Both the position numbers and the translations under genes were made by a program. A stretch of 64,000 bases of DNA. Origin: Hoeflea phototrophica DFL-43. Lineage in GTDB: Bacteria; Pseudomonadota; Alphaproteobacteria; Rhizobiales; Rhizobiaceae. Positions 38,081-58,228 of this stretch are shown here, in pieces; position 1 is the first letter of the stretch, and each line of letters starts with the position of its first letter. Below the pieces are notes generated by a model that did not search any database, was not told the DNA's origin, and was given only the letters and a program-made list of their open reading frames with translations. Location: assembly GCF_000154705.2 (NCBI RefSeq), contig NZ_CM002917.1, positions 2,064,461 through 2,128,460 on the forward strand, read 5' to 3'.

Positions 38081-38128
38081 GAGCTTTCTCAATCCGAAAT
38101 TGCGGACCCTTTGAGCTCGCTCAATCCG
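38081..38128 (+). repeat. Short imperfect direct repeat, 32-nt period
   Basis: GAGCTTTCTCAATCCG (38081-38096) recurs as GAGCTCGCTCAATCCG (38113-38128), 14 of 16 identical. The two copies stand just upstream of the transposase remnant and may be part of a decayed insertion end. Confidence 0.55.
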
Positions 38129-38130
38129 CG

Positions 38131-38355: not shown

Positions 38356-38363
38356 GCAAATAA

Positions 38364-38445
38364 CCCCGGGAAATTTTCCAGCCGGGTGGTCCAAATTCGG
38401 GGCAGGCTCAATATCCCCGGGGAGTTCCCGCCCGGAGCGGTCCAA
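38364..38445 (+). repeat. Two tandem 31-nt IS-end-like units, 51-nt period
   Basis: Unit 1 (38364-38394) and unit 2 (38415-38445) both begin CCCCGGG and end GGTCCAA, agreeing at 21 of 31 positions. They follow directly after the transposase stop, where an IS3-type right end would lie. One explanation is two nested or successive IS ends. From 38446 to 38692 I see no gene. Confidence 0.55.
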
Positions 38446-38692
38446 TGAAGGGGAGCATGTCAGAATATAGAACCGTCTTAGTATGCCCGATGCCGCTGGG
38501 TGGGGGCATCCACCACATCAGTTCACTATTCACTTTGACTTGCAACAAATCACACTCAGGTCATAATCGGTCTGCGCTTAAAGTTTGACTGCGTTTGCTC
38601 GCCAAGTTTGCAAGGCCAATGGCAAATACCGGCTCTTGTTGAGTCCATGCATTCAAATGGTCATGTCTTCAAAGCTGGTGAAGGAGACACCT

Positions 38693-39619
38693 GTGAAAGC
38701 TAGTCCTGATGAAGCGGAAACCCTTCACTTTGAAGAAGTCGGCTACGGCAAAGCGGTACGATCGACGGATGGACCATTGCGTGAGAGCGCCGTATATGGG
38801 CTCAATCTGATTACGCCAGGTATTGTCAATCCGCTGCGCTTCATCCCCGCCAATTTTCTAGGCAATGCCAATCTGACCTCCAGCATGATCGATCCGGCCT
38901 TTGCCCAGCGCGGCGCATTGATCGTAAAGGCCGTTGATGAAGGGCTGGCAATCATGCGTATGCGCTATCGCGCCGAAGCCGGAGAGGGGGCGGCCGGCCG
39001 CCAGTTCCTGCTGTCGCGGACCGTGGTGGTCCCCGGGGTCGAGTATTGGGCCGACATTCCACGTGGACTTTTCTCTTGGGCTGAACGTGAACTGATTGCC
39101 CAAGCCTTCGTGTTTGATCAGACCCGGACCGCGTCCGCCCAATCGGTGAAATTGCCGCAGTTCCAATCGCGCGGTATCGATTGGTTCGATCATTTGAGCC
39201 GGCGTCGCCAGGTGCAACTCGGTTCTGCTTACCAGGCCATCACCAAAAGAATTGGCTGGACGGTCTCCAGAGTGGTCGCCGAAGAGGAGGGCCAGTCTCC
39301 ATCTGCGCTGATTGCGGCGGACCTCGATGTCATTGCCTCATTGCCGAGGAAGTTTGCGCTTCGCCAGGGACAGGACGATCAATTTATCTTCAACCTTGGC
39401 ATTGAGCCCGCGTTGACGCCTGGTGCGGTGAGCTATTTTCCAGGGCATCTTGGCGGTGCGATAGAAGCGCCGGACCTGGGCGCGCTCAGGCATGCAATCA
39501 GCAGCGGGAGCGATGAGCCGACTCTAGTTGAATCCGTAGAAAAACGGAGTTCTCTGCTCCATGACAGTCTTGATCGGCGTATCGGAAGCGAACCCATTCC
39601 ACTTAAGTGGCATCTGTAA
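38693..39619 (+). CDS. Island gene 1: unrecognised cytoplasmic protein
   Basis: A protein of 308 residues. I choose GTG 38693 because AAGGAG lies at 38681-38686 with 6 nt spacing; upstream ATGs at 38657 and 38663 lack any ribosome site. No signal peptide or membrane segment is seen. It mixes beta and alpha regions, for example YGLNLITPGIVNPLRFIPAN and GRQFLLSRTVVVPGVEYWAD. The C-terminal half contains SYFPGHLGGAIEAPDLGALR. I recognise no family. It is 110 nt upstream of the ATPase-like gene and reads the same way, so it may head the island operon. It could be a regulatory or adaptor subunit, but that is position-based inference. Confidence 0.7.
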   Translation: MKASPDEAETLHFEEVGYGKAVRSTDGPLRESAVYGLNLITPGIVNPLRFIPANFLGNANLTSSMIDPAFAQRGALIVKAVDEGLAIMRMRYRAEAGEGAAGRQFLLSRTVVVPGVEYWADIPRGLFSWAERELIAQAFVFDQTRTASAQSVKLPQFQSRGIDWFDHLSRRRQVQLGSAYQAITKRIGWTVSRVVAEEEGQSPSALIAADLDVIASLPRKFALRQGQDDQFIFNLGIEPALTPGAVSYFPGHLGGAIEAPDLGALRHAISSGSDEPTLVESVEKRSSLLHDSLDRRIGSEPIPLKWHL

Positions 39620-39729
39620 CAAATTCAGACAATTAGGTTGCATTTTATCTATTTACCTTGGCGCCATTCTGCGTCGTCTCATCGTTGCGTTAGGGGTTTA
39701 TAAACTATATCCTCGAGTTCACTATAGGG

Positions 39730-42700
39730 ATGAGTATTGGCGTTGGATCTTTGATGTTGGAGTGGGATCTAAGTAACCCGAAAAAGACGCAGCTGCGCGT
39801 TGAGAACTGTTCCGTGATCGGCGATCTTGGAGTGGTCTCAACGATTTTGGCCCTGCGGCATACCAGTTTGCCGGGGTCTGAGAGACTGCGAATTTCTGTT
39901 GCCGGGTATATAGAAGAAGCGCCCTGGTTGCGTGCGGCGTTGCGCAGCACGGAAACTGGGGAGTCCATGCTTCAGTACGACCTGGGATCTGACAGCTGTA
40001 TCAATTTGGTTCTCGAATGCTCTCGCGAACCGACCGAAGACGAGATTCTGCTGGCATCGCGTGACAGCTTCATGCTTTCGCTTACGCTTCAGTCGAAACA
40101 GGCCGATGGCAAGTCGCAAAATCTCAAGGTCGAGATACTCAGCCCGAAACTGAAGACGCTGAAATGGACCAAGCCGGTAATCCAGGCCAGGCAGGTGGCG
40201 ATACCCGAGCTCAGCCGGGTTGAGAAGCAAGATCGCGACGACGTCGATCTGTTTTCCATCAACGTCACCCAACCGTTTACCCGGCTGGAGTTTGGTGGCC
40301 CGCCCATCGGCGCACTGGTCTCAGGTCAGTTGAGTTGTTTGGTGGATGATGAAGTCAAGAAAGTCTCAGCAAATCTAAGCGTCGGCACGGTGATGGCTCG
40401 CGCGAACACCGGGGTGGCGTGCGAGTTGCGTTCGGGTGACGAGGTGTCGATCGGATGCATTGTTTCCATCAATGAGGTCTTCGATGCGGCTGAAGGCGCG
40501 GATATTTTGCGCATGCAGTTCGAATGGACCTGTGCCTTCAGCGATGACAGCCAGCAGCCACTGTCTGGCACCTATCATTTCGATCTGCAGTTGCGCCAAG
40601 GCGAAATCCTGTCGCTGAAATACCGTGATGCTTCGGCTGTGCCCAATATGGTGAGAAGCCGCACTCCCTTTGCCGAGCGTTTTCCGCTGGAGTTTTCGGT
40701 TCCGATTTCGGGCGGCAGCGTACAGTTCGAATTGGGCGACACCATTGAATTCGACGCGGTCTTTCTCGATGACAGCTGGGATGTGGTGGCGCATGCGCAC
40801 ATTCTGCCGGAGGGGGAGAAAGCGTCGCTATCCGATCGGGCGGATTTCAAGCTGGTCCAGGACATCGTGGTCGACCCGGGCAACGGCGGAAAAATTCGAA
40901 TCCCGTTCCACAACACCACCCTTGACGAGACCGGCGATACCGACCGCTATCAGCTCTTTGTCCGCTTTGAGGCGCGGCGCCTGAAGGTTCGGGCCGGAAT
41001 GTCTCTCGTCGCAGAGGACGATCTTTTCGAACATAAGTACGGGATGATCGCCGTTGATATCGTACTGCGGCAGCGGGACCCCAAATACCTGATTTGCCTT
41101 GACTATGGGGCATCCGCCATTGCGGCGTGGTTCGGACGGGTTGAACGCAATCTGGCACGCGAACTCATTCCGCTTGGATCTTATGCCTACAGCCTGGCAG
41201 GTGCGCATTCGGAATATGATCCGAACAAGAAGCGTTGGCAGAATGTCCTCATCCCGTCGACAATCGGCCTCAATCCGTCCCGCCATCTGCGTTCCCGCAA
41301 GGCACCCTTGTCCTATGGCAACCTGGCTTGCGTAGGCACGAAGCTACAGGCTGCCGAGAAGCGGATGGCCATGTTCGGAAGAACCTATGATGTGTCCATC
41401 CCGGTCGACCGGAACTTCATTTCCGATGATGATACCGCCAATTATCTTCATTTGCAGACCATCATGATACCCGACCTCAAGCGCATGCTGATGAATGCGG
41501 ATCCGGAGTTCAAATACCGGATCAAGCAACCCGTCATCGAGCGCACGGCGAACGGTTTGCAGACCACCCGCGAGATCAATCTTTCGGCACTTACTGCCGA
41601 TGCGTTCCATGAATTGGGCTCCTACATCATACCCAACTCGCTGTTTTACGCCCAAGACCAGCTTGATGGCCCTGTGGTCAGTGAAATGGGGGATGAGCGC
41701 TTTGATCAATGGCTGGAGAGTGCGGACAGTGATGTACAGGTTGTTGTCACCCATCCAAGCGGCATCGCCCATCATAAGCGCGAGCTTTACAAGAACGCGG
41801 CCAGATCTTTCGCCAAGGGGCTGACCGGTGCTGAGGATTCTCGCGCCGCGCGGGAACCAAAGCTGATTCCGGAAGCGCTCTCTGCTGCCTATTTCGGCAT
41901 CTCCCGTTCGCCTTTGCGCTACGAGGGGACCCGGATGTTCGCCTGTATCGATGTCGGCGCGAGCACTGTCGATGCGAGCCTTATCGAAGTGAAGATGCGC
42001 CACGACAGCATCGAAAGCTGGAAGGTCTTCGCACATTTCGGTGCAACAATCGGCGGCGCGAATCTCGACGAGGCGCTGCTCGCGACACTGATTTCCAATC
42101 TGCGTGAGCTGTTCTCTGGCACGGATCCGGTGTTTGAAGATCTCGAACTCGATCGTCGTTTTGTCCGCGATGAAGCACTCAAGACCACCCTCTTACCACG
42201 GATTCAGCAAGCCAAGCGGGTGCTTTCGGAGGCTCTGATGGAAAAAGCAGGCGCTGACGGGGAATTCCGCTGGGCTCGTGAAGGTGTGGGAAGTGCATTC
42301 ACAGTGGAACTCAACGAAATCTTGCGCAGTGCCTCTCCAGGTCAACCGTTGAGCGAACGCAGGACGCCAATTCCTGGATCCAATGAGCTTGTGCATCTTT
42401 GCGTAAGAACGATGTCGACCGGTGGGCAGGCGGTTTGGATGGAAATCTCGCCGGAATTGCTAGATGCAGACGAGCCGGTGGCCAATCCGTCCCAAACCAA
42501 TCCCAAGACCGTGGCCCGTACGCTCGGTTATGCGGTTCCGGCAATGCTGATTCGCGAGGCGCGACGGCTTGGTCTTGAGGATCCGCAATGGGTTGTCACG
42601 GGCCGCGCCAGCCTCTGGCCTTCGGTGTTCACCGGCATTGGCAACACCGCACAGTTGCTCGGCCAGCCCGTTGACGCAGCGCCGCACCGCCCGTTCAGCG

Positions 42701-43152
42701 CCGATGACATGAAGAACGCCACAGTCTACGGCGCAGCAAGGCTTGCCACGTCAGGCCTGGAAATCACCGATGGTGCCGATCACTCCTATGCGTTGGTGCT
42801 GCATGATGAAGGCCGTGGTGTTGTCTCCGAGATCGAATACCTCGACACGCGTTCGAGGTCCGAGGGAAACAAAATCGTGCGTTTCCTTCCCAACCGGTGG
42901 TTAAGCCGTGTGCTGCCCGGTCTCGATGATGTTGGCAGCGAAAACGACATCACCCGGGATGAGATTGTCCACCTTTTTGGAATTTTCGGCCAAAATGTGG
43001 TTGTCGATCAGTCGCAAGTCAAACCCGGCGGTCTGGCGGGCGGTCAGGACCAGAATGTCGAAATCTCCTGGAAGCGCAGGAATTCTGAAGTCGAGTTTAC
43101 CGTCGGCGACATCATCGTCCGACAGCCGCGAAGTCGCCTGGCGGGCACCTAG
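39730..43152 (+). CDS. Island gene 2: large Hsp70/actin-fold (ASKHA) ATPase-like protein
   Basis: A protein of 1140 residues with no membrane segment. The N-terminal 450 residues are beta-rich and unrecognised. From there an ASKHA nucleotide-binding core is suggested by three motifs in order. A phosphate-1-like LDYGASAIAAWFG has Asp458. Phosphate-2 is CIDVGASTVDASLIE, with Asp741, matching DxGxxT. An adenosine-like WVVTGRASLWPSVF has Gly958. The 283-residue gap between the first two is longer than in Hsp70. The C-terminus (about 1095-1140) lacks a typical substrate-binding domain. It precedes a small membrane protein by 9 nt. It may act as a nucleotide-dependent switch or chaperone. SrfB-type proteins are a possible comparison, but I could not confirm homology. 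Confidence 0.68.
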   Translation: MSIGVGSLMLEWDLSNPKKTQLRVENCSVIGDLGVVSTILALRHTSLPGSERLRISVAGYIEEAPWLRAALRSTETGESMLQYDLGSDSCINLVLECSREPTEDEILLASRDSFMLSLTLQSKQADGKSQNLKVEILSPKLKTLKWTKPVIQARQVAIPELSRVEKQDRDDVDLFSINVTQPFTRLEFGGPPIGALVSGQLSCLVDDEVKKVSANLSVGTVMARANTGVACELRSGDEVSIGCIVSINEVFDAAEGADILRMQFEWTCAFSDDSQQPLSGTYHFDLQLRQGEILSLKYRDASAVPNMVRSRTPFAERFPLEFSVPISGGSVQFELGDTIEFDAVFLDDSWDVVAHAHILPEGEKASLSDRADFKLVQDIVVDPGNGGKIRIPFHNTTLDETGDTDRYQLFVRFEARRLKVRAGMSLVAEDDLFEHKYGMIAVDIVLRQRDPKYLICLDYGASAIAAWFGRVERNLARELIPLGSYAYSLAGAHSEYDPNKKRWQNVLIPSTIGLNPSRHLRSRKAPLSYGNLACVGTKLQAAEKRMAMFGRTYDVSIPVDRNFISDDDTANYLHLQTIMIPDLKRMLMNADPEFKYRIKQPVIERTANGLQTTREINLSALTADAFHELGSYIIPNSLFYAQDQLDGPVVSEMGDERFDQWLESADSDVQVVVTHPSGIAHHKRELYKNAARSFAKGLTGAEDSRAAREPKLIPEALSAAYFGISRSPLRYEGTRMFACIDVGASTVDASLIEVKMRHDSIESWKVFAHFGATIGGANLDEALLATLISNLRELFSGTDPVFEDLELDRRFVRDEALKTTLLPRIQQAKRVLSEALMEKAGADGEFRWAREGVGSAFTVELNEILRSASPGQPLSERRTPIPGSNELVHLCVRTMSTGGQAVWMEISPELLDADEPVANPSQTNPKTVARTLGYAVPAMLIREARRLGLEDPQWVVTGRASLWPSVFTGIGNTAQLLGQPVDAAPHRPFSADDMKNATVYGAARLATSGLEITDGADHSYALVLHDEGRGVVSEIEYLDTRSRSEGNKIVRFLPNRWLSRVLPGLDDVGSENDITRDEIVHLFGIFGQNVVVDQSQVKPGGLAGGQDQNVEISWKRRNSEVEFTVGDIIVRQPRSRLAGT

Positions 43153-43161
43153 AGAACGGAA

Positions 43162-43980
43162 ATGGTTGTGTTTGGTATTGAGTTCACATCCGGTTTAGCG
43201 CAAGGCCTGTCCATCTTGGCACTGCTTGTCCTGGGCGGGAGTGCAGTCTGGCTTTTTTGGCGGCTGCGCCAGAACGAGAAGCTGTTGGTCGCGGTGCGCC
43301 GCGAAAACAACAAGCTGCGCCATGAGGTCGCCAATGTCACCGGCTGGACCGCAAATGGGCGCCTTCCTGAAGATTGGCCCGAGAAGCTCCGAGCAGAGAC
43401 TGCCGCCGCTGCCAGCTACACCGGTTCATCGGTGTTGGAGACACTGCGCGAGCCAATGCTTCACGCTGCCCATCAGGCTCTTACGGCAATTGCGCCGCCG
43501 GTATTCGCCTCAAGCGACAGCGCCGACGAGGTTGATCGTGCGCACAAACGCATCACCGAACTGATCGAAGGTCTTGCGAACGAGCGGATTGATCCGCTGC
43601 CGGCGCTCGCCAATGGTGATCTCGACAAACTGATCTGTTTTTGGCGCCGGCTCGAAGCCTACTTTCCCGATCGTCCCGAAACCGATGCCTACGGTATTGC
43701 TGGGCATGCGCTCGTTGATTTGCTCAGGCGCAATGATGTCAGTCTGTTTGCCCCTCGGCCCTTGTCTGTGGAAAGCGCCAAGAACTGCGTTTTCACCACC
43801 GAGGATCCCGAGAGACTAAGAGACATCCCCCGTGTCCGAACCGTGGCCTTTGCGGCCAGCACGCGGTTTACGACCCCTCAGCGCGGCGAGGAGCTCGTCA
43901 TAGATTGCGAGCGCCCGGGATGGAGCGGCCCCGGCGGCCAGAAGAATGCACGAATATTGATCCTCGACCGATCTTGGTAA
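43162..43980 (+). CDS. Island gene 3: single-pass membrane protein, possibly GrpE-like
   Basis: A protein of 272 residues. One N-terminal membrane helix (LSILALLVLGGSAVWLFW, about 13-30) is followed by a basic coiled-coil start, EKLLVAVRRENNKLRHEV, so the bulk is probably cytoplasmic. The C-terminal part has helices, then a beta-rich end (GEELVIDCERPGW, ARILILDRSW). Helix plus beta-wing layout, and its position directly after an Hsp70-like gene, suggest a GrpE-like exchange factor. Sequence similarity is too weak to name it so. Start ATG 43162 follows GAACGGAA. Confidence 0.6.
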   Translation: MVVFGIEFTSGLAQGLSILALLVLGGSAVWLFWRLRQNEKLLVAVRRENNKLRHEVANVTGWTANGRLPEDWPEKLRAETAAAASYTGSSVLETLREPMLHAAHQALTAIAPPVFASSDSADEVDRAHKRITELIEGLANERIDPLPALANGDLDKLICFWRRLEAYFPDRPETDAYGIAGHALVDLLRRNDVSLFAPRPLSVESAKNCVFTTEDPERLRDIPRVRTVAFAASTRFTTPQRGEELVIDCERPGWSGPGGQKNARILILDRSW

Positions 43981-43995
43981 TGCGCAGGACTGGTA

Positions 43996-45516
43996 ATGAC
44001 CTTAGGTAACCCCGTACGCTTTAGCGACGAATCTGATCGTCCGGTGATCATGATCCCGGCGAAGGTGGATTTGCGTGACAGCCAGGCGTTCTGGCGCCGT
44101 AAGGTCTTTGCCATGCCAAGATCCGGCCTTTTTGCCTGGCTCGGCAGGAAACGTCGCAACCGGCGGCGGGGATTCGCATGGATTGTCGGCGGCGATCCAA
44201 GCCCCACGGGCCGTTCCGGTCTGTTCGGTGTCTCACGCGGCTCTGTTGATGAGGTTCTCTACAACATTACCGACCAGTTGATTATTGGCACTGCCAATGG
44301 CAGTGAGGTGGTCGAGGTCGCATTCCAGCATCTCACATTCGTGTCGGGTCCCGGTGGGGTCTGTGACACAGCGTCCGAGCGCGGACTGGAACAGCGGATC
44401 TCGGAAAGCCTGGGCTCGACCTTGAAAGGCTATTTCGATCCGACCATCGGGGTCAGGGTTGACTGCATGGTCAATCCGTCGCTGCCATCCAGCCAGGTCA
44501 ACATGTATGTAGGGCAGGGCATCTTTGTTCCACGGCGCGGCGAGCGCCCTATTGGATGGATCCGGTATTATCCCGACCCCTTCAACCGTGATGTGTACGT
44601 CGAACCCCGGTTGCTCGATGGCCGCCCCGCGGGTGTTTACAAGGGGCAGGGTGGGCTGGTGATTGGCACCGGGGAAGGATTGCTGCATGCCGATATCGAT
44701 CTGGGTTTCGGCGAGGAGGTGCAATCCTCGTTCCTCTTCATAAGAAAAGACGCCATGCCGGCCAGAACCGGTGACGATGCGCGCTGCAGCGGTGTCGATG
44801 CCCGCCTGTCTTTTGCCCGCAGCCATGGCAATGAGCCTGTTCCAAGCCGGGTGGCTAGCATCGACAGCCATTGCGACATCGCCTGGAAAATCGACTATGT
44901 GGCAACAGCCCAGATTCCCGGAAGGTTGGAGTTGTCGGTCGATGCGCGCAAATCGCGGCTGCACTGGTCTCCCAGAAATGGGTGCAATGCCGCGATCACC
45001 TCGCTGCTGTTTGATCTCAATGATTTTCGCAACCGCGATGTGGACCGTCTCTGGATCGATCTCGACCATGACAACATTCTTACCGCCTATGCACTGCAGG
45101 TTCCCGGCGTATCGCTGGTCTGGGACCGCAAGTCGGGGGAGCAGTATGTCTATGAATGGGGTCAAACCGGCAAACCCTTCAAGACTCCAGGAGGCTGCGG
45201 CCTGAAGTGCCGGACCATCGACAAGAACATCATTGAGTTCGGTAGAGCCGACGGCCAGCCATTCGGGTATCTGGAATTGCCCGAATTGCGGGAGAAGGCG
45301 ATATTTTCAGACGCGTTTCAATCCTTTGCCGGCTATCACCTTGACTGGCTCGACCAGTGCGGCCGCATTTCCTTTGGTGACACAGTGGTTTCGCTCGGTG
45401 AAGCCTATGCGGAAAAGTGTTCTGGCATGCCGGTCTCGGCTTTCCGTCCGGGCGAAACACGAAAGGTGGTTGGGCCCCTTGTCCTGGTGCCATTTGAACG
45501 GGGGCGGGAGCCATGA
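43996..45516 (+). CDS. Island gene 4: unrecognised beta-rich protein
   Basis: A protein of 506 residues with no signal peptide or membrane helix. It is rich in beta-strand-like segments and Gly (FGVSRGSVDEVLYNITDQLI, VYVEPRLLDGRPAGVYKGQG). It has nine Cys, including two close together in GGCGLKC; with no export signal these are presumably reduced. I know no family that matches. It starts 15 nt after the previous gene and its stop overlaps the transpeptidase gene (ATGA). That coupling makes it likely that the product is needed with the transpeptidase and SEDS proteins, perhaps as a cytoplasmic scaffold. Confidence 0.65.
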   Translation: MTLGNPVRFSDESDRPVIMIPAKVDLRDSQAFWRRKVFAMPRSGLFAWLGRKRRNRRRGFAWIVGGDPSPTGRSGLFGVSRGSVDEVLYNITDQLIIGTANGSEVVEVAFQHLTFVSGPGGVCDTASERGLEQRISESLGSTLKGYFDPTIGVRVDCMVNPSLPSSQVNMYVGQGIFVPRRGERPIGWIRYYPDPFNRDVYVEPRLLDGRPAGVYKGQGGLVIGTGEGLLHADIDLGFGEEVQSSFLFIRKDAMPARTGDDARCSGVDARLSFARSHGNEPVPSRVASIDSHCDIAWKIDYVATAQIPGRLELSVDARKSRLHWSPRNGCNAAITSLLFDLNDFRNRDVDRLWIDLDHDNILTAYALQVPGVSLVWDRKSGEQYVYEWGQTGKPFKTPGGCGLKCRTIDKNIIEFGRADGQPFGYLELPELREKAIFSDAFQSFAGYHLDWLDQCGRISFGDTVVSLGEAYAEKCSGMPVSAFRPGETRKVVGPLVLVPFERGREP

Positions 45517-48353: not shown

Positions 48354-51300
48354 AACGCTTGCGCTCCATAGCCGCGGGATTCGGGATCACCATGCGCCTT
48401 GTTTTGGGGCTTGCGACCATTGCCGTGATTTTCTGGTGGATGTTCGCCCTCCATGTGGCCGCGGAAAAAGCGCCGCAGTTCAGCGCGCTGAAGGATCTCA
48501 AACTTACAATTCCAGCAGGCAGCGAAGCGATCCTAGGCCGAGCCGAGTTGCTTCAGCCTGCCGGCGCGCGCACCGCTGAACTGCGCCATCTACGCCTTCG
48601 AGCATCCGAGGAGGGAACGCTCTGGATCAGCCGGGTTGCCGAACTGCGGGATCTCAACGTTGAATTCGACGGCCACACTGAAGAAGGCTCAAGCGAGCGC
48701 TATGAGATTTCGCAGGTGGAAGGAGCCGTCACCGTTCTTTCTGCGGGCGCGCAATTCGTAAAGATCTCGGTCCAGCAGGACGGCGGTGTGAGTGTCTCGG
48801 TCGAAGACTGGACCGGCAAGGCCAGTTCCAAAACAATCTACCCCGATGGTTCGGAGCTGCTTGTTGACGGCAAGCCGGCGAAGAGTTGCTACGAGCAAAG
48901 TCTGGCCTCATCGATCGTCCTGAAGGCGAACAGAATCAGTGACGAGGCTGCTCGCTTTCTCTCCCGCACCCTAGAGCCTGCCGCGCTCGATACACTGTTC
49001 AAACGTAGCGGAAAGGCAACTGTTGCAGTGCTTGGCGGCGACGTTGACTGCACCATGCACAGTTACGCGCTGATAGCGATGCCCCGCGCCAATCCAGAGC
49101 TTGAATTCGTAGTCCGCAAAAATCTGTCCGATGGCCGTCTGTTTGCTTCGATTTACCGCGAGGCGGCGCTGGTTCCGGTCAGTTTCGAGACCTGGCTTGA
49201 TGGACAACGGGTCCGACAGCATTTCGGCCGCAACGGGATCGAGTTCCCGGTCGCTTCTTCAGGCCAACTTGACCAGCCCAAGGTGACCCATTTCACAGCC
49301 GGAAAGACCCGCTATTCGATTGCCACTGAACTGCTGCCGTCAGGCACATGGAAGATCCTTATCACGCCGCAGCGGCGCATAGCCCTGTATGACGAAAGTG
49401 CATGTCCGCAAACCGCCGGCGGCCAAGCGGAAGCGGCGATTACGGAGGATTGCCCCCCGCCGCTCAATGCGTCTCCCAACACTCCGATCGAAGGGGTGCA
49501 GATAGAGGTTTCGAAGCAACAGCGGCCCTCAACGCTCGACCGCTTGTTCGTGGGCAGCACGGATGGGCTCGTGAGCGCAGAGGTTCTGGCCAGAAGTGCC
49601 GCGATCGCCTTGTCCCTGTTGATCATTCTGGTGGTTCCAAGCGTTACCGTCTGGCGTGCCAATGGCAGCGTGATCAAGGCCATCCTTTTAGGTCTGGCTG
49701 GCATCTTTGTTTTGCTGTTGGCGCTGCTGCCCGATCTGGTTTCCATTGGCCGCCATATGACGGACTTGCCGGATGCATCCAGATGGCTGTTCTATGGTCT
49801 CGGCGCGACCTGGGTGTGCGCGACAATCGTAGTTATCTTCGATCGCTCGGGTGGGGCCAACCTCGCCGCCCTTTGGTTCGTGTTGACCGCCATAATCGCG
49901 CTGAGTTCGATTTCCATGTTCACCATGAGTGCAGAAGGGCCCAACACGGATTGGGAACGCTTCTTTGTCAAGCACAAGCTCGCAGTGCTTGATGTGCTGC
50001 CACTCTTCGTGATTGCGCTCACAATTGTTTCGCCTACCGCACTCAAACTGCGCATCGGCAATGATTTCGCGGGCAGGCCTTCCATCGCATCGCCGACGCT
50101 GTGGCTGCTCACAATCGTCTTCGCCCTGTTTGCGGCTTGGTTCTTTCTAGGCAATCAGACCGGCCTTGGGGGCTCGATCCAGCCGGTCGAAGCGGGCAAG
50201 TTCGCCATCGTGGTGTTGCTCGGCGCGGCACTTGCACAATGGCTCATCCGGGCGCGGCTTCTGGCGCAGGCCTGGTTCGGAATAACCTTGATCGCGATTG
50301 TTTTGTCGTCGCTTTTCATCGTTGCCCTGTTGTTCGTTCCCGCGGTCAAATCCGATTATTCGCCGCTGATCATCATCGCGTCAGTGAGCGCGATCACGGG
50401 CGTTGTGGGCGTTATGGCCATCGGGTGGCGGATCAAGGAGGAGGAGCATGACGATCTCAGCGATATCAAGCGTATTCCTTTGGCCTATGTGCCGCAAATC
50501 TCCGATCTGCGAATCAGTCTCATGCAGTTTGTGCTGCTGGTCCTGTTGTTCGCAGCCATCATGCTTACGCCACTGATACAGGGCAGTCGCCTTGATGAGT
50601 TGTTCCGCTTGGCAAAGGATGCGCCTGAGTATCTGCTGGCTGCCGCCGTGATTCTGACTGCCCTTGTTGTCATGCTCCTGCGAACCTTGGTCATTCCGCG
50701 TGCGATCCTCATCATTATGATGGGGTTGCCGCTGGCTTTCATGGGGGCCTGGGCGTTGTGGCGGCAGGAAACGCTCATTCTGATTGCTGCAACCGCCGGG
50801 CTTGTTATCATCGTTATAGGACTTGCGGTCGGCAAAAGGATCAATGGTGCGTTGGCGCGCATGGCCATCGTAGCGCCGATTGTTGCAGTGTTCTTCGCAG
50901 TCGCCCTGCAGGATGTGCCGGCCAAGGCAGGGCTGGGTGTAGAGCACTGGTCCTGGTTTGACCGTCCTGAAAAGCAGATCGCAGAACTTGAGAAAGTGCT
51001 GGGCGAAGGGCGGCGGCTCCCGGTCGAGCGGTTGATGAGTTGGTCGGATCTTCGTTTCGATGGCAGCGACAGTCCGGCTGAGCCACGAAAACTGATGCTG
51101 CGTGACATGAACTTCCATGTCCTGCGGTCCCGCGCCACACTTGCCAATGCGCCATGCTCGCCAAGCCAGGAACTCACGGCCGCGCCGTATCACATCGGCG
51201 AAGCGGTAAAGTGGCTGAGCGAAGGCATCGCCGAGGTGCTGGGGATCGCCTGCGAGGACGAACAGCAGGTAACCGGAACACTTCGTTGCACGCCATCGAC

Positions 51301-51745
51301 GCTCAAGGGGCCGGTGAGACCGCATTGCGTACCTGTGGTTCAAAGCGACTTCGCCGCCACCTACATTGCCACCCGGCACGGAAATGCCGCAGCGCTGCTT
51401 CTGATCGCGCTGCAGGCTGTTTTCATCTTTCTGGTGATCCAGTTATACCTCAGATTGCAGGCCAAGCGCTCCCGCGATCCCGTCGAAACCGGGGCGGATC
51501 AGGCTCTGGCATTGATCGCGCTGGGAGCAGGCATGCTGTTCCTGATGCAATGGATTCTGGCCTGGTCAAATGCCTTTGGCCTTTTGCCAGTGATGGGGCA
51601 ACCCATGACCTGGCTATCGGCAGGCACCAGCCATCATCTTTTCATGGCCATTCCAGCGGCGCTGGTGATCCTCGTCGCCACCCGTCTGGCCGGCATGAAA
51701 GCCCCAGTTCTGACAACCCGCACCCCGCCGCGACGCAGGGGATAA
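48350..51745 (+). CDS. Island gene 6: SEDS family (FtsW/RodA-like) glycan polymerase with large ectodomain
   Basis: A protein of 1131 residues. A first helix (about 14-38) leads to an ectodomain of about 370 residues. About 17 more membrane helices follow from about residue 415. SEDS landmarks: SIQPVEAGKFAIVVLLGAAL (Gln611, Pro612, Glu614, Lys617), matching the QPSExxK element of FtsW/RodA; VVQSDFAATYIATRHG, aligning with TDFIFAxxxEExG so that Asp1000 is the likely catalytic residue; and FGLLPVMGQPMTWLSAGTSH, matching GLLPxTGxxLPFxSxG. FtsW and RodA have about 10 helices in 400 residues, so this is much expanded. The loop before Asp1000 has four Cys. It overlaps the transpeptidase gene (ATGA). 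Confidence 0.85.
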   Translation: MKRLRSIAAGFGITMRLVLGLATIAVIFWWMFALHVAAEKAPQFSALKDLKLTIPAGSEAILGRAELLQPAGARTAELRHLRLRASEEGTLWISRVAELRDLNVEFDGHTEEGSSERYEISQVEGAVTVLSAGAQFVKISVQQDGGVSVSVEDWTGKASSKTIYPDGSELLVDGKPAKSCYEQSLASSIVLKANRISDEAARFLSRTLEPAALDTLFKRSGKATVAVLGGDVDCTMHSYALIAMPRANPELEFVVRKNLSDGRLFASIYREAALVPVSFETWLDGQRVRQHFGRNGIEFPVASSGQLDQPKVTHFTAGKTRYSIATELLPSGTWKILITPQRRIALYDESACPQTAGGQAEAAITEDCPPPLNASPNTPIEGVQIEVSKQQRPSTLDRLFVGSTDGLVSAEVLARSAAIALSLLIILVVPSVTVWRANGSVIKAILLGLAGIFVLLLALLPDLVSIGRHMTDLPDASRWLFYGLGATWVCATIVVIFDRSGGANLAALWFVLTAIIALSSISMFTMSAEGPNTDWERFFVKHKLAVLDVLPLFVIALTIVSPTALKLRIGNDFAGRPSIASPTLWLLTIVFALFAAWFFLGNQTGLGGSIQPVEAGKFAIVVLLGAALAQWLIRARLLAQAWFGITLIAIVLSSLFIVALLFVPAVKSDYSPLIIIASVSAITGVVGVMAIGWRIKEEEHDDLSDIKRIPLAYVPQISDLRISLMQFVLLVLLFAAIMLTPLIQGSRLDELFRLAKDAPEYLLAAAVILTALVVMLLRTLVIPRAILIIMMGLPLAFMGAWALWRQETLILIAATAGLVIIVIGLAVGKRINGALARMAIVAPIVAVFFAVALQDVPAKAGLGVEHWSWFDRPEKQIAELEKVLGEGRRLPVERLMSWSDLRFDGSDSPAEPRKLMLRDMNFHVLRSRATLANAPCSPSQELTAAPYHIGEAVKWLSEGIAEVLGIACEDEQQVTGTLRCTPSTLKGPVRPHCVPVVQSDFAATYIATRHGNAAALLLIALQAVFIFLVIQLYLRLQAKRSRDPVETGADQALALIALGAGMLFLMQWILAWSNAFGLLPVMGQPMTWLSAGTSHHLFMAIPAALVILVATRLAGMKAPVLTTRTPPRRRG

Positions 51746-51784
51746 ACTCCGCTAGTATTCACGTATGAGAGAGCAGGCGCCAAA

Positions 51785-54019
51785 ATGGACAAGAGAACAG
51801 AAGACGGGACCCCGATCCTCAGTGCAACCCGCTTCAAGCAGGTCTTGATCATTCTCTTTGCGGCCATTGCATTTCTGATGACCGTTTATGCAACGAGCGG
51901 TGGCGCTCGTATGTTCCTGACCGAATCCTATGCATGGGTTGGGATCACGGCTCTTGCCGTCGGGTTTCTGGCGTTCACATCTGTAGTTCTGGGCGATGGC
52001 ATTTCGTCCGGGCGGATGCCACAGGTTGCGCTGGTGACGCCGTTCTATCTCATTGCCGTGGCGATCTGCTGGATTTCGTCATTTGCATCCTACCACCAGC
52101 AGTTTCTCAGTGTCGGCGGGTCGGATCTCGCCAACGCAGAGACGAATCTGCGCCAAATTGGGCTTTATGCCTACGATATCAACAGGGATGTCAAGGACCG
52201 GTATAGCCGCGACCGGAACGCGTTGTTGAATGATGATGCGCTCAAGGACTATTCGGCGCGAATGAATCAGCTTGCCGACGACCTGCGTGATCGAGACACC
52301 CAAATGGAAATTGAGGTTGAACTGGCAGCGCTTATTGAGGCCAGGATTGAAGAGCAAAAGAACCGCCAGATTCAACTCCAGGATCAGCAGAGCAACCTTA
52401 AAGCCGATGCCCTGAGCCTTGCCGCTCAAGTCGAAACTCACGCAAAAACCGTCAATGACAGGCAGAACCAGCGGGTGGCGACCGAGACGCTGATCGGGCA
52501 GCTCGAGCTCGCCTTGCGCCAGGAGGAGGGTGATACCGATCAGGCTCCAGGCGGCCGTGGCGTATTGGAGGCCGATGGGCTGGCCGGCCAACTTGTCGAT
52601 GACCCTGCATGCAACCGCAGGCGCCGGGCCGGCACCGGCGGCGGCCTGATAGGAACCTGCTACAATGCGCTAGGGGAGAAACTTGCCGAAATACGGGCTC
52701 TGACCCCGCAGGATCAGAGCGCCTACGAGGCAGCGCTTGCGGAATTGCAGGCTGCGCGCGATCAGCAGTCAAGCTTGCAGGCCGAAATCGCGGCGCTTGA
52801 TGAAGAGATAAAGGCGGCGGTGGTTGAAGACAGTGAGGGCATGGCTGCCCGCTATGCGCTCGATGCCGACGGGTTCCTGCAAAGTGTCAATGCCTTCACA
52901 GACACTCCGTCCCAGTCGAATTTCGAGCAGACAGCCAACTACTGCCTTATGGTGACCGAGATTCTTGCCAATCTGCAGTCCATATCCGAAGTTCCAGCAT
53001 GCAAACCGCAGCCGACCATGGCCATTTTCCGTCAGATCGATGCGCTGGATGCGTCGCATGCCAATTATGAGGCTGCCTGTGAGGAGGCTGACCGGCGCAA
53101 GGAGATCGTCGAAACGCTGCGCACCGAGATTTCCGGCCTCACCGGGTCGCAAAGGCTAAATCCAATATCGCAGGCTTATGAGGTGATGCGTTCGGATGTG
53201 GTTGAACCTTGCATCATGTCGGCAGAGCAGCGTGGGCTGGATATGACCCCTTACCGTCAGGATATCTCCGGGCTGGTTGACCGCATCAACCCGTCTCAAG
53301 ACCCGATAAGCACGGCAATGGGCAAGATCCAGTCGCTGTTCAACGGCACCGCATCTGCGCGCGATTATTTCCCGGCCTTGCTCGCCCTGCTGCAGGAATT
53401 GTCGCTCTTGCTCTCCAAGTTGTTCTGGGACGCCAGCATTATGGCAAAAACTTCACAGCGGAAGGATGAATTCGATATTTCCGAACTCGACCTCGAGGCC
53501 AAGCCGGATGATCCTGAATGGGTTCTGGCCGCCAAGAATATCATCCTCAATGCCGTGTTTGACCGTCCGGGATATCGGCTGCCAGCACTTTATGATGAGG
53601 AGTATTCACATGAAATGCGCAACCAGATGCGCTTGATTTTGGACACTCTGATCCGCAAGCAACTGGCAAAGGCGACCGGGCAGAGGATCTCGATTTCGGA
53701 AGCTGGAATGGCCGAGATCGGCAGGCGAATCCAGCGTCACAATGAGACGGTTGAAGGCCGTGCCGCCAAACGCGACGCAACCCCCATTGGCACGGCGGTC
53801 TCCATGGTTGAAAAAACCAAGACAACCGATGCCAAACCTCAGGACCCGGCCATGGTTCAATCAGCCGACCAAACAGACGTGCTTGAGGATGAAGCAGAGC
53901 CGGATTCCGCAGAGAATGTAGCCTCGGAAACATCTCAAAGCGATGACGGGGAGTCTGCACAACGACCGCGCAGGCGCAGGCCTGTGGTGGTTCGGCCCAA
54001 CTTCCGGCGCGAAATTTGA
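51785..54019 (+). CDS. Island gene 7: polytopic membrane protein with coiled-coil domain
   Basis: A protein of 744 residues. Three helices lie near the N-terminus (about 18-37, 49-69, 79-97). A long helical, Gln/Glu/Arg-rich region with heptad character (about 100-310) follows, then a second helical region, and a likely fourth helix (YFPALLALLQELSLLLSKLF, about 530-550). The C-terminal 190 residues are polar and end in an Arg-rich tail. If the N-terminus is cytoplasmic, the coiled coil is periplasmic; its Cys (six) fit disulfides there. I recognise no family. It lies 39 nt after the SEDS gene and may hold the synthase complex together. Confidence 0.68.
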   Translation: MDKRTEDGTPILSATRFKQVLIILFAAIAFLMTVYATSGGARMFLTESYAWVGITALAVGFLAFTSVVLGDGISSGRMPQVALVTPFYLIAVAICWISSFASYHQQFLSVGGSDLANAETNLRQIGLYAYDINRDVKDRYSRDRNALLNDDALKDYSARMNQLADDLRDRDTQMEIEVELAALIEARIEEQKNRQIQLQDQQSNLKADALSLAAQVETHAKTVNDRQNQRVATETLIGQLELALRQEEGDTDQAPGGRGVLEADGLAGQLVDDPACNRRRRAGTGGGLIGTCYNALGEKLAEIRALTPQDQSAYEAALAELQAARDQQSSLQAEIAALDEEIKAAVVEDSEGMAARYALDADGFLQSVNAFTDTPSQSNFEQTANYCLMVTEILANLQSISEVPACKPQPTMAIFRQIDALDASHANYEAACEEADRRKEIVETLRTEISGLTGSQRLNPISQAYEVMRSDVVEPCIMSAEQRGLDMTPYRQDISGLVDRINPSQDPISTAMGKIQSLFNGTASARDYFPALLALLQELSLLLSKLFWDASIMAKTSQRKDEFDISELDLEAKPDDPEWVLAAKNIILNAVFDRPGYRLPALYDEEYSHEMRNQMRLILDTLIRKQLAKATGQRISISEAGMAEIGRRIQRHNETVEGRAAKRDATPIGTAVSMVEKTKTTDAKPQDPAMVQSADQTDVLEDEAEPDSAENVASETSQSDDGESAQRPRRRRPVVVRPNFRREI

Positions 54020-54210
54020 GTGCGCGCCAAGGGGGTCTCCCAAGCCGGAATGACACGGTCAATCCGTTTCTTGTGAAACGAAGCCAGCTTTCGGGCCGGT
54101 TTTGCAGCTCCGGTGCAGCAGGAATGTTGACCCAGAATACCCGTGCAAGATGGTCCCGAGGCAAGACATCTTCTTGCCCTGTGGACCACCTGGTGCCGCG
54201 CCAAAAAAAT

Positions 54211-55209
54211 CTAGAAAGTGATGCCGTTGCCGGAAATGCTGAAGCGGTCGATTGCGGGCGGCTGTCGCATGATCCCGCTCAGGATCTCGTCTCTTGTGAA
54301 AAGAAACGGGCTTTCGAGCCCAAGTGCGGCAAAGATGAAAGGATCAGCTGTCATATAGGGGTAACGCACATTTTCCGGGGTCAGTGGAACCGGAAAGCGC
54401 GAATTTTCTGGATTGAGGGTCTCGGCCTTGGTGTCGATGTTCGCGCACCCGAGTTGCGGGTGAAAGCCGTAGCTCGATGTTGCAATGAACCGCAGATCGA
54501 TCTCGCGTTCCTGAGAAGGAAACGGCCTGAAATCCTTGATGATGTCGAAGGCAGGCCGCATGTGGGCGTGCAGAATGGCCAGCACTGCTTCGGGCTCCGT
54601 GGCGATGTCGCGCGATCGGTTGCCGAAGCGAAGCAGCAAAAGATCAAACATGCTAATGGCGATCGCCACGCGCTCAAGATGCTCGAATTCCGGCTTCCCG
54701 GCACGCTCGAAGAAATCTTCAACCTTCTCGATCAGTTCCTCGAACCCGGCGTCGGTGCCGGCGTTAAGAGCCGATATGACCAGAACGATCCCCTTGGCCT
54801 TCGAAAACCACTCGTCGAGTTCTTTCATCTTGCTTGCGTGTGGACTTGCCTTGCCCGACATGTCCGGTCCGGGAAAAGCCGCTTCACCCGGGGCATCGCG
54901 GACATGAATGGTGAACTGCTTGTCTTCCAATTGTCCGACCGGTTGCAGGCCATCCATATCCGGAAGACTGACATTAAGATTAAATCGAATATCTGTGACG
55001 CTTTCTGTGGCGTCCGGAAGGCTTCGGTAGTAACTTCTGAGTAGGCGACGATTGACCCTGTCAGTCTCGATTTCGATATTGTGGAGTTGCTGGAAACCAT
55101 GAAAGTTAAACTCGACGCATTTGGCGAAGTCGACAAACAGGTTTGTTTTTCCAGACCGCACTGGTCCGGTCAGGCCGACATGGATGTCGTTGCTTTCAGT
55201 CAAAGGCAA
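54211..55209 (-). CDS. Island gene 8: P-loop GTPase
   Basis: A protein of 332 residues without a membrane segment. Walker A is GPVRSGKT (Gly15 to Thr22). The G3 motif is HVRDAPGEA (Asp105, Gly108). A G4-like position is ISMFDLL (Asp189), which lacks the usual Lys of NKxD, and IATSSYG may be G5. This fits a TRAFAC-type GTPase, with an altered G4. It is convergent with the coiled-coil gene (191-nt gap, no clear terminator) and divergent from the next gene, 80 nt away. It likely acts as a switch for the island machinery; whether it uses GTP needs test. Confidence 0.78.
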   Translation of the reverse strand: MPLTESNDIHVGLTGPVRSGKTNLFVDFAKCVEFNFHGFQQLHNIEIETDRVNRRLLRSYYRSLPDATESVTDIRFNLNVSLPDMDGLQPVGQLEDKQFTIHVRDAPGEAAFPGPDMSGKASPHASKMKELDEWFSKAKGIVLVISALNAGTDAGFEELIEKVEDFFERAGKPEFEHLERVAIAISMFDLLLLRFGNRSRDIATEPEAVLAILHAHMRPAFDIIKDFRPFPSQEREIDLRFIATSSYGFHPQLGCANIDTKAETLNPENSRFPVPLTPENVRYPYMTADPFIFAALGLESPFLFTRDEILSGIMRQPPAIDRFSISGNGITF

Positions 55210-55222
55210 ATCAGCATTCCGT

Positions 55223-55250
55223 TTGTCGTGTTTTCAAAATAACTTATAAA
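55223..55250 (+). promoter_or_regulatory. Candidate promoter of the last island gene
   Basis: TTGTCG (55223-55228), a 16-nt spacer and TATAAA (55245-55250) form a sigma70-like promoter in the 80-nt AT-rich gap between the divergent GTPase gene and island gene 9, 40 nt before the ATG. It suggests that these two genes have their own control. Confidence 0.5.
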
Positions 55251-55289
55251 AAAGCAATAAACCATTTGAATAGTGCGGGGAAGAGTCGA

Positions 55290-57842
55290 ATGGGATATCG
55301 GGCAGGAAGTGACAGCGAGAAGATCTGGTTGGCCTGGGATGGCGAAGACCAGGCGGTTCTGGGTTATTTTTTCTCCAAAGGGGAAGAACTGGTCAAACAC
55401 CGCAAGGGCATGGTGGTGTTGTGTCACCTCAAACCGTCCGCGTTTCACGAAAGCAATCGATCCGGCATCGTGGTCGATGCATTTTCCATCGGCCCGGGTG
55501 ATGGTTTCGTGCGGGCGTTACGCCTGCCGCGCGACACGCATTCGGTGGAATTGTTGATTGATGACGCCAATTCCGCCCGTCCTCTCAAGACCTTTGAACT
55601 CATGCGCGACGTCGACAGCCTCGGCCCGGAAACGCGTTATGGAAATGTGGTGATAGCCCTTCCCGAAGGCGAAGGTGGCCAGCCGGATGCCCGTTTCGTT
55701 TGGTCGGACAAGCGCATCCATCACGTTAAAAAACCCAATGCCCATATCGGTTGGGCCGGGTACTTCTCCTGCTGGCCTGCTGAGGACGACGATGGTTCGA
55801 ACAAGGTCGTTGCCATTTCGAGCTTTCGGCTGGAAGTGCCGCATCTTGAGGATGCGCTGCAAATTTTCCCGGTCGGTTACGACATCGCCGAGGCAGAACT
55901 TGTCGGCAAGGACGATCTTGCGACAGCGATCATGCGAGCTTCGGTGGAAAACGACCGGGTTCAAAATGCCGTTCTGACCATTGAGGGCAGCCTGCCACTA
56001 TTGCAAGGACTGTATTTCTTACATGTCTCAGCGCATCGGCAGCGTGCCAACGAGTGGAGCGATATCATCGATATCGACCCGGGGGCCTTCCAGTCGATCA
56101 GTGACAACCTTGTCTCTGCCTACAAGCAGTTGCTGTCAGAGGCTGGCGATTGGAGTGCGGACGAAGTCGATGATGCCGGGCAGAACCTTATTGAAGTCCT
56201 GACCAAGGAGCATCGCTGGTTTGAACTGTCCTCGCCGGATTACTTTGTCGATGTGGTGGTCGACGAAACCGGCGAAAAAGCCAAACTTTCGGTTTTCGAG
56301 ATCTCTGCCGGCGACCATTTGGTTTTCTATGACACAATGGGTCGTAAACTGCGCGCCGGACAACATCTGAGCTCCGACAACATCATCGCATTTGAGGCCA
56401 ACACCAGCGGTCTGCAGTTGTTGCGTGGCGTCTACACCCTGGGCCACAAGAAGATCTCCGAAATTGATGCGCACCGGCCCGCCCGTCGAACCTCCATGTC
56501 TGATACGGACAATTTCGAAACCCTTCCGCCCGCACTCGTAGCCGAACATGAACGCATCGGCGCGCCGTATACGCCCTTTGACATGGTGCCTTTGAAGGTA
56601 CATTCGGCCCTATTGAATGGCTTTGACAACTCGGAAGGTGCGTTTGCCTGGGAAGAATTCATCAAGGATCCCACCCCATGGTTTCTTGCCGAGGCAATGA
56701 ACCCGGATTTTTGCTCGATCCACAAGGACGTCAAGCCGGCCCGAGACGGCAATATTCTGGTTCGCGCACTCAGTCTGCTCGGACGTGAACAGGCCTTCGT
56801 CGCACTGCCGCAACTGGAAGACCAGATCGTTGCCGCTTTCCTGATCATGCGCCTAGCCAAAACTCCGGTTCTGCAGACCTGCGTCTATCGTATCAACGGT
56901 CTCAGCCCCGCAGGGGATGACATTCCGGCGCTGGCGGAAATGGTCACGACGATCGATCAACGCCTGGCAAGCGCGGAATTCCGCGAGTGGCTTTCACATG
57001 GTCATCCCGAATTGTCCGAGCGGCTGTGTGGCCCCAATGGTCAATTCCGCCCGATAGAGCGCAGCATGCTGTCGGATATCTGCCAGGAGATCATCCACGC
57101 ATCAGAAGTCTACGATGCCTTCCATGGAAGTCTGGGCGAAACCATGCGCCGGCCACTTGAAGCCAGCGCCGACGGCGGGCGTTGGCAGTCGCAGGGTGTC
57201 AGTGAAGAGGCGCTTGATAGCCTTATCGCTTCACTAATTGAATCCGATCTGGCGCGCGACAAAATGGCAGGCCGCCACTATGAATCCATGCTCGAGCAGT
57301 TTGGACGAAATGCCTATTATCGTAGCCGGATCGCTGCTGACATCTACAAGAAATATCCTGAGCTTCTCCCCAACGACAGCAAGAAGCTGATGGAGTATTT
57401 GCGTCGGTTGCTCAGCGAGTCCGGTTGCAGTTTCGACATGCGCAACTTTGATGAGGAACTGGTCGAGAGAGTTGCGGAAAACATGCAGAACGTGGAGCCC
57501 TGGCTCCTGCCCAATGCGGTGAACATGCGCAAGAAGGCGCAGGTCGAGTTGGACAATGTTTCGCTCAATTCGCCCACGGACGAAAAGAAGAAGGCCGACA
57601 TTATAGAGTATGCAGTCGCTCACGAAATGCAAAAAGCCTGGGATGATATTGTAGATATAATCACCCGGGCCGAGGTGTCCGGAATCAGGGTGCCGACTAA
57701 ACTTAAGCGGCTTCAGTTGCTCTGGCCACGCGAAAGTTCGACGACTCTGGGCGAGTTCATCAGTTTTGAACACAAGCACCGTCATGTTCTTGGGAACAAG
57801 TTAAGTGAGCGCTACGGTTATGGTTCCGTGCTATATGCGTGA
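55290..57842 (+). CDS. Island gene 9: large unrecognised protein, divergent partner of the GTPase
   Basis: A protein of 850 residues. I start at ATG 55290, preceded by GGGGAAGAG with good spacing; the open frame extends to 55143 but overlaps the GTPase gene's start region. No membrane segment or signal peptide is seen. The first 240 residues look beta-rich (RYGNVVIALPEGEGGQPDAR), the rest mainly helical, with a C-terminal region of charged helices. I recognise no family. Large soluble partners beside GTPases occur in some proposed bacterial conflict systems, but I cannot link this sequence to one. It may be the GTPase effector or regulator. Confidence 0.68.
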   Translation: MGYRAGSDSEKIWLAWDGEDQAVLGYFFSKGEELVKHRKGMVVLCHLKPSAFHESNRSGIVVDAFSIGPGDGFVRALRLPRDTHSVELLIDDANSARPLKTFELMRDVDSLGPETRYGNVVIALPEGEGGQPDARFVWSDKRIHHVKKPNAHIGWAGYFSCWPAEDDDGSNKVVAISSFRLEVPHLEDALQIFPVGYDIAEAELVGKDDLATAIMRASVENDRVQNAVLTIEGSLPLLQGLYFLHVSAHRQRANEWSDIIDIDPGAFQSISDNLVSAYKQLLSEAGDWSADEVDDAGQNLIEVLTKEHRWFELSSPDYFVDVVVDETGEKAKLSVFEISAGDHLVFYDTMGRKLRAGQHLSSDNIIAFEANTSGLQLLRGVYTLGHKKISEIDAHRPARRTSMSDTDNFETLPPALVAEHERIGAPYTPFDMVPLKVHSALLNGFDNSEGAFAWEEFIKDPTPWFLAEAMNPDFCSIHKDVKPARDGNILVRALSLLGREQAFVALPQLEDQIVAAFLIMRLAKTPVLQTCVYRINGLSPAGDDIPALAEMVTTIDQRLASAEFREWLSHGHPELSERLCGPNGQFRPIERSMLSDICQEIIHASEVYDAFHGSLGETMRRPLEASADGGRWQSQGVSEEALDSLIASLIESDLARDKMAGRHYESMLEQFGRNAYYRSRIAADIYKKYPELLPNDSKKLMEYLRRLLSESGCSFDMRNFDEELVERVAENMQNVEPWLLPNAVNMRKKAQVELDNVSLNSPTDEKKKADIIEYAVAHEMQKAWDDIVDIITRAEVSGIRVPTKLKRLQLLWPRESSTTLGEFISFEHKHRHVLGNKLSERYGYGSVLYA

Positions 57843-57922
57843 CGAGCCCTGAAGATATGGCGTTCCGCGGTTGCCCGGACAAAACTCGCAACAACCGGCA
57901 AATCCCACATAATCCCGAATAA

Positions 57923-58168: not shown

Positions 58169-58228
58169 GATGGCCTCCTTGTCTCAGATACAGGGAAGAA
58201 GGCGTCTGCGAACCTAGGGGCATATTCA

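What the first reader, a model, noticed from the sequence alone, without database searches (positions are those of the whole stretch)
38693..57842. Candidate new system: SEDS polymerase, class B PBP, ASKHA ATPase and GTPase in one island
Nine large genes fill 19 kb between housekeeping lexA and a sugar-acid locus. Seven read one way with small gaps or ATGA overlaps. Two are recognisable by intact motifs as a peptidoglycan polymerase (SEDS) and its transpeptidase. Two carry nucleotide-binding motifs (Hsp70/actin-fold and GTPase). One has a single-pass anchor with coiled coil and one is polytopic with coiled coil. The rest match nothing I know. Normal rod and division machines lack such a set. 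Inference: an accessory wall-synthesis complex switched by an ATPase and a GTPase, perhaps for localised growth, a differentiated structure or a response to attack. I see no nuclease, toxin or secretion component, which weakens a simple defence reading.
Basis: partly seen in the sequence, partly recalled or inferred. Interest (0 to 1): 0.92.

Follow-up and report, generated by a model that had tools for sequence, protein, structure and literature searches.

The report
Mobile wall-building machine with molecular switches
Nine genes that sit together at different places in distantly related bacterial genomes encode a predicted pair of cell-wall-building enzymes along with a predicted Hsp70-like ATPase and a predicted GTPase, and the set likely works as one machine that would build or mend the wall on demand, perhaps when the cell is attacked.

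Summary

All nine recur together at 20-36% identity in three distant alphaproteobacterial loci; a four-gene core (g2, g4, g5, g6) recurs in two genomes of another genus. The set is rare and patchy: 6 of 18 genomes of the genus, this one included. It occupies different sites; a close relative has the lexA site without it. One copy lies between twin insertion sequences; two lie near methyltransferase genes of restriction-modification type.

The host shows one other SEDS (presumably FtsW) and no MreB-sized match. I read the cassette as a mobile accessory peptidoglycan synthase gated by an ATPase and, in full versions, a GTPase, most likely for envelope repair or defence. Wiring, trigger and benefit are inferred. 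The mycobacterial Fha-RodA-PbpA operon is the nearest analogue in layout, but no FHA domain was found by sequence.

The parts
38663..39619 (+). g1, 318 aa, no TM segment in a hydropathy scan, no known family; follows g8 in G256 and G663 and is next to g8 in G1175
   Evidence: homologues at 26-32% identity in G256, G663, G1175
39730..43152 (+). g2, 1140 aa, Hsp70-type (ASKHA) ATPase core in residues ~450-1010, N-terminal half of unknown type
   Evidence: DnaK in PDB E 4.2e-6; hhalign to DnaK 96%; DxGAS, DxGxxTxDA and TGR motifs
43162..43980 (+). g3, 272 aa, one N-terminal TM segment, then a soluble region
43996..45516 (+). g4, 506 aa, beta-rich in the predicted model, no family; found in every cassette locus read through this region
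   Evidence: weak fold resemblance to FhaA N-domain only
45513..48353 (+). g5, 946 aa, class B penicillin-binding protein (transpeptidase), SxxK 556-559, SxN 678-680, KTGT 874-877
   Evidence: Pfam PF00905 5e-15; motifs in 6 of 6 aligned members; PDB hits SpoVD, PBP2
48350..51745 (+). g6, 1131 aa, SEDS peptidoglycan polymerase (residues ~425-1117) with a ~375-aa probable periplasmic part in front and an internal insertion
51785..54019 (+). g7, 744 aa, three N-terminal TM segments, then a long region with conserved Cys
54211..55209 (-). g8, 332 aa, P-loop GTPase-type protein, nearest DO-GTPase2
   Evidence: G1175 member shows TKID
55290..57842 (+). g9, about 850 aa, no known family; divergent from g8 across ~80 bp
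37962..58230 (.). stretch absent from the corresponding site of G412; the nine-gene cassette with its flanks
   Evidence: blastn against G412 stops at 37961 and resumes at 58231
38227..38355 (+). remnant that looks like an IS3-type transposase C-terminus at the left edge (read by eye, family name recalled)
   Evidence: translation

Best explanation
Nine genes that recur together in distantly related alphaproteobacteria encode a SEDS-family protein and a class B PBP with intact catalytic motifs beside an Hsp70-like and a GTPase-like protein, and they likely form one membrane machine that would make or mend peptidoglycan when its predicted nucleotide switches are thrown. Shown here: the gene set, its repeated co-occurrence, the family or motif evidence for g2, g5, g6 and g8, and its patchy presence at different chromosomal sites. 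Inferred: g6 polymerises lipid II and g5 crosslinks the strands, as FtsW-FtsI and RodA-PBP2 do. Inferred: the large periplasmic part of g6 senses the wall or a damage signal. Inferred: membrane proteins g3 and g7 couple it to a cytoplasmic switch of g2 (ATP), g8 (GTP), g4 and g9. Inferred: the benefit is conditional wall repair or reinforcement under envelope attack (phage, predator, rival), since the set spreads like a defence module and its GTPase is closest to those of conflict systems.
For: Identity: g5, g6; g2; g8. Controls: five other cassette families against DO-GTPase and DnaK gave at most 1.3% probability, and g8 against another P-loop protein, ClpA, 9%. Co-occurrence: all nine in G256, G663 and G1175; g2, g4, g5 and g6 in G301 and G366. 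Mobility: 6 of 18 genus genomes have g2, the window's included; unoccupied site in G412; other contigs than lexA in G398 and G400; twin 809-bp copies of an insertion sequence, 99.9% identical, around the G1175 copy. Surroundings: type III methyltransferase upstream in G256, type II methyltransferase and Vsr downstream in G663; vWA, PP2C, kinase and CHAT genes beside G256. One other SEDS and no MreB-sized match in the host genome.
Against: No experiment. None of the nine matches a PADLOC model convincingly (best E 0.036), and no nuclease or toxin is in the set. Restriction-modification genes were found near 2 of the 3 distant nine-gene loci; none was recognised by eye around G398, G400, G1175 or the window, and those flanks were not scanned with PADLOC. 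G301 and G366 keep g2, g4, g5 and g6 without g1, g3, g7 or g8, so the GTPase is not always needed; the ~790-aa protein before g2 there is not a recognisable g9 (0.1%). Their copy sits among the same ordinary genes in both genomes, which looks like vertical descent, not defence. g6's model is of low confidence (pLDDT 52), and Foldseek ranked FtsW only 11th, E 0.28. g8's DO-GTPase link is moderate: Pfam E 0.011 in 1 of 4 members. Interaction of the nine proteins was not tested.
Confidence: 0.48

Rival explanations
1. A specialised morphogenesis machine: an accessory SEDS-PBP complex that builds wall at one place (pole, septum, stalk or attachment site) in normal life, replacing part of the Rod complex that this host lacks.
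For: The host shows one other SEDS and no MreB-sized match, and the abstract of PMC8546619 (seen in the listing) says Rhizobiales are polarly growing and lack homologues of the canonical Rod complex. The layout resembles the polar-growth operon of mycobacteria (passages of PMC11898655 and PMC6554272). The reduced version is stable in place in G301 and G366.
Against: 12 of 18 genomes of the genus show no g2; 3 of these 12 are under 90% complete or over 5% contaminated, so at least 9 good genomes live without it. It sits at different loci.
Confidence: 0.28
2. A suicidal or growth-stopping defence: on attack the switch lets the extra synthase make futile or misplaced wall, so the infected cell stops growing or lyses.
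For: Switch proteins and genomic surroundings like those of conflict systems; the CHAT gene beside G256.
Against: The catalytic motifs of both enzymes are conserved in the aligned members, as expected of a productive synthase; no toxin-like part in the cassette.
Confidence: 0.1
3. An antibiotic-tolerance module: a divergent PBP and SEDS that keep working when the housekeeping enzymes are blocked by beta-lactams.
For: A divergent transpeptidase (29-36% identity between clades) on a unit found at different sites.
Against: A tolerance PBP needs no nine-gene set with ATPase and GTPase; I recognised no resistance genes by eye among the flanking ORFs, which were not scanned for them; no match on 72,556 plasmid records (g2 of G663, g2 of G301, g5).
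Confidence: 0.06

Closest known systems
Rod complex (RodA-PBP2 with MreBCD, RodZ)
   Same: SEDS polymerase and class B PBP in adjacent genes; best NCBIfam model for g5 is PBP2 and for g6 RodA
   Different: scores far below the RodA and PBP2 equivalog cut-offs (32.6 of 336.7; 53.2 of 455 bits); no MreB-sized match in the genome; seven other genes of unrelated families; patchy and at different sites
Divisome synthase FtsW-FtsI(-QLB)
   Different: the host has another SEDS, presumably its FtsW; g6 carries a ~375-aa extra part and an insertion; no FtsQ, FtsL or FtsB model was among the hits of the nine in Pfam or NCBIfam at E<=1
Mycobacterial fhaA-fhaB-pstP-rodA-pbpA-pknA-pknB operon
   Different: no FHA or FhaA profile match in 19 g4 members nor by profile comparison with FHA domains; no kinase or phosphatase among the nine; ATPase and GTPase instead
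DO-GTPase conflict systems (Kaur et al. 2020, PMC7159879; passages seen)
   Same: g8 aligns to DO-GTPases over 165 columns at 90%, with the Glu after DxPG
   Different: g9 does not match the one GAP1 protein compared (with an alignment that also held the two doubtful G301/G366 proteins); the term search of the paper found no FtsW, transpeptidase or ASKHA

Membership tests
SEDS polymerase family | profile match above the curated cut-off | tested here: met
   33.7 bits, cut-off 26.4; at E<=0.01, 4 of 6 members match; at E<=5, 7 of 9
SEDS polymerase family | SEDS fold over the full membrane domain | tested here: met
SEDS polymerase family | catalytic-type Asp in an outer loop (role recalled) | tested here: met
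   D1000 of PVVQSDF aligns with PE-HTDF of SEDS; Asp in 9 of 9 aligned members and G1175
SEDS polymerase family | glycosyltransferase activity | not testable with these tools
   needs biochemistry
RodA or FtsW orthologue | NCBIfam equivalog cut-off | tested here: not met
   32.6 of 336.7 and 26.2 of 337.5 bits
Class B PBP | transpeptidase domain with SxxK, SxN, KTGT | tested here: met
   also G1175
Class B PBP | single N-terminal membrane anchor | tested here: inconclusive
   hydropathy scan at cut-off 1.6 found none, though residues ~12-33 read as hydrophobic
Hsp70/ASKHA ATPase | phosphate-1, phosphate-2 and adenosine motifs | tested here: met
   motif names recalled; no Pfam family match
Rod complex | MreB and RodA partners | tested here: not met
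   MreB profile finds three frames of 474-651 aa, none MreB-sized; the best, 60.2 bits in 651 aa, is over the cut-off and presumably DnaK; only two SEDS, one of them g6; whether the other is FtsW or RodA was not tested
DO-GTPase | DO-GTPase profile match | tested here: inconclusive
   hhalign 90.4%; Pfam E 0.011 in 1 of 4 members
DO-GTPase/GAP1 system | GAP1 partner | tested here: inconclusive
   one GAP1 sequence compared with the g9 alignment, 0.1%; no GAP1 Pfam hit in the nine
FhaA-RodA-PbpA operon | FHA-domain protein | tested here: not met
   by sequence only; a structural hint remains
Known anti-phage systems (PADLOC) | match of a component model | tested here: not met

The most novel reading that the evidence does not exclude
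A transferable immune system whose effector is a peptidoglycan synthase: an Hsp70-like ATPase and a DO-GTPase-like switch sense envelope attack and turn on a dedicated SEDS-PBP pair that walls off or repairs the damaged site, so that bacteria defend themselves by building and not by cutting or killing.
Probability: 0.32. Interest if true: 0.95.

Novelty: categorically new. Interest (0 to 1): 0.8.

Why it matters
SEDS-PBP pairs are known from elongation, division and sporulation, run by core housekeeping proteins (general knowledge). Here such a pair is fixed in a nine-gene cassette found at different genomic sites, with an Hsp70-like ATPase and a GTPase as likely controllers and five families without any annotation. 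If it works as read, wall synthesis can be a portable trait, and a conflict-type switch can drive a building enzyme. It also gives bacteria of a lineage said to lack the Rod complex a second SEDS polymerase, and cassette-bearing and cassette-free Hoeflea species make a ready natural comparison.

Tried and rejected
A five-gene core with g9, which I first believed: the ~790-aa protein before g2 in G301 and G366 starts with a similar W-D-G stretch, but a g9 alignment of the nine-gene loci does not match it (0.1%; hmmsearch E 0.035 and 0.26 in a two-sequence search). The core is therefore four genes (g2, g4, g5, g6). My g9 alignments A5 and A14 contain those two proteins, so searches used a mixed alignment. 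I lowered the best explanation from 0.5 to 0.48 for this.

GAP1 for g9: no. g4 versus g9: unrelated. SrfB, a large ASKHA protein that I recalled, was not among the Pfam hits of g2, which had none.

Plasmids: no match for g2 of G663, g2 of G301 or g5. Viral contigs: none for g2 or g8. PDB by sequence gave nothing useful for g6, g9 or g4. g6 against a single own-genome SEDS was weak (13%) and was replaced by a 26-sequence SEDS alignment (26 of 30 loci given, 4 dropped by my motif and length filter). Weak Pfam hits of single g7 and g9 members look like chance or coiled coil.

Distribution counts lean on sampled genomes and on sensitivity: order 4 of 397 with a single protein; class 8 of 385, of which 6 are 25-32-bit matches to the Hsp70-like core; phylum 40 of 398, of which 37 are 26-33-bit matches to it, presumably DnaK and kin; family of G663 3 of 275, G663 included. 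The large protein searches scored only the ~8000 candidates sharing most words and returned 18, 14 and 4 proteins. G1128, cut by its contig end, has g8, g3, g4, g5 and part of g6 and a 975-aa protein that matches no cassette profile. In the G1175 member g8 lacks DxPGE (DFKGE) but has TKID. My first regular expression for g6 in G1175 was wrong and was corrected by alignment.
Full report
What is there. Nine genes fill 38663-57842. The window is part of a 4.47-Mb single-contig genome, and the named relatives found for g8 are Hoeflea (82-84% identity). g1-g7 run on +, g8 on - and g9 on +. g4/g5 and g5/g6 overlap by the usual four bases. g8 and g9 face away from each other across about 80 bp. Scans of the nine against Pfam, NCBIfam and PADLOC give convincing matches only for g5 and g6.

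The switches. A profile of g2 finds DnaK in the PDB and aligns with a DnaK alignment at 96%; its nucleotide-site motifs are conserved. g8 has GxxxxGKT and DxPGE. It aligns with three DO-GTPase-type proteins over 165 columns at 90%, and one of four members reaches the Pfam DO-GTPase2 model at E 0.011. The G1175 member lacks the P of DxPGE but shows a TKID guanine motif. Five other cassette families gave at most 1.3% in the same comparisons, and g8 against the P-loop protein ClpA gave 9%.

The set travels together. All nine occur in order-mate G256, and in G663 and G1175 of another family of the class. G663's g4 has a close relative named Gymnodinialimonas. Between the four nine-gene clades every one of the nine lies at 20-36% identity, so the association is old. 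Gene order varies in blocks: g2-g7 is constant, g8/g9 stays a divergent pair, and g1 moves. G301 and G366, one genus, hold g2, g4, g5 and g6 with a ~790-aa protein in front that I first took for g9; a direct test does not support that. G1128 holds a fragment or variant. The reduced version means that g1, g3, g7 and g8 are not always needed.

It is rare and sits at different sites. g2 is in 6 of 18 genus genomes, the window's included. All nine genes were checked in three of these six (window, G398, G400); in G397, G406 and G410 I saw g1 to part of g4 only. In G412 lexA and the dehydrogenase that flank the cassette here lie about 0.7 kb apart, and alignment stops at 37961 and resumes at 58231. 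The 0.67 kb between them in G412 did not align, so this is an unoccupied site, not a clean footprint. In G398 and G400 the cassette lies on another contig than lexA. Two direct copies of an insertion sequence, 809 bp and 99.9% identical, enclose the G1175 copy; a transposase-like gene, read by eye, stands before the G256 copy; a remnant lies at the left edge here. G256 has a type III methyltransferase 19-22 kb upstream of g2 and a UvrD-type helicase, then vWA, PP2C, kinase and CHAT genes; G663 has a type II methyltransferase and Vsr within about 7 kb downstream of g1.

How it most likely works. Shown: the parts and their company. Inferred: g6 polymerises and g5 crosslinks; the extra part of g6 and the membrane proteins g3 and g7 pass a signal; g2 and g8 gate activity with ATP and GTP; g4, g9 and g1 are scaffold or adaptor parts. 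The host shows one other SEDS, presumably FtsW (not tested), and no MreB-sized match, so the cassette adds a second polymerase to a lineage described as polarly growing without the Rod complex (abstract of PMC8546619, seen in the listing). Its patchy spread and surroundings favour a conditional, protective role over routine growth. I put that whole reading at 0.48, a morphogenesis role at 0.28, a suicidal role at 0.1 and antibiotic tolerance at 0.06.

What it is like. The mycobacterial fhaA-pstP-rodA-pbpA-pkn operon also ties a SEDS-PBP pair to cytoplasmic signalling (passages of PMC11898655 and PMC6554272). The g4 model (pLDDT 68) resembles FhaA's N-domain weakly, but no FHA domain is detectable by sequence; this is an analogy, not membership. 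The DO-GTPase conflict systems (passages of PMC7159879) share the switch type; a term search of that text found no FtsW or transpeptidase. The listings of literature searches showed no paper on such a locus; two listed only part of their hits, and the library holds open-licence papers only.

On the novelty label. The two enzymes belong to known families. I rate the system as categorically new because, among the wall machines and defence systems that I compared or know, none holds more than two of the nine parts, and because the set occurs at different sites as a unit. If the wall role proves to be plain growth, 'new variant of a known kind' would be the right label.

Noticed in passing
L012:190-6876: Beside the G256 copy: vWA, PP2C, kinase (with weak TerY_C) and a CHAT protease gene, like the signalling triads of conflict systems.
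   Followed up: partly
L098/L099 (G1175): Two near-identical insertion sequences in direct orientation enclose the nine genes, as in a composite transposon.
   Followed up: partly
window 38227-38355: Remnant that looks like an IS3-type transposase between lexA and g1.
   Followed up: partly
L100:9651-12578 (G1128): A 975-aa protein between g8 and g3 that matches no cassette profile; perhaps a replacement of g9 or g2.
   Followed up: partly
L019:487-2853 and L020:1052-3418: A ~790-aa protein directly before g2 in G301 and G366 with a W-D-G start like g9's but no detectable relation to it; it may be a functional stand-in.
   Followed up: partly
L018:11443-12075 (G366): OmpA-family protein near the reduced cassette, with other unannotated genes shared with G301.
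   Followed up: no
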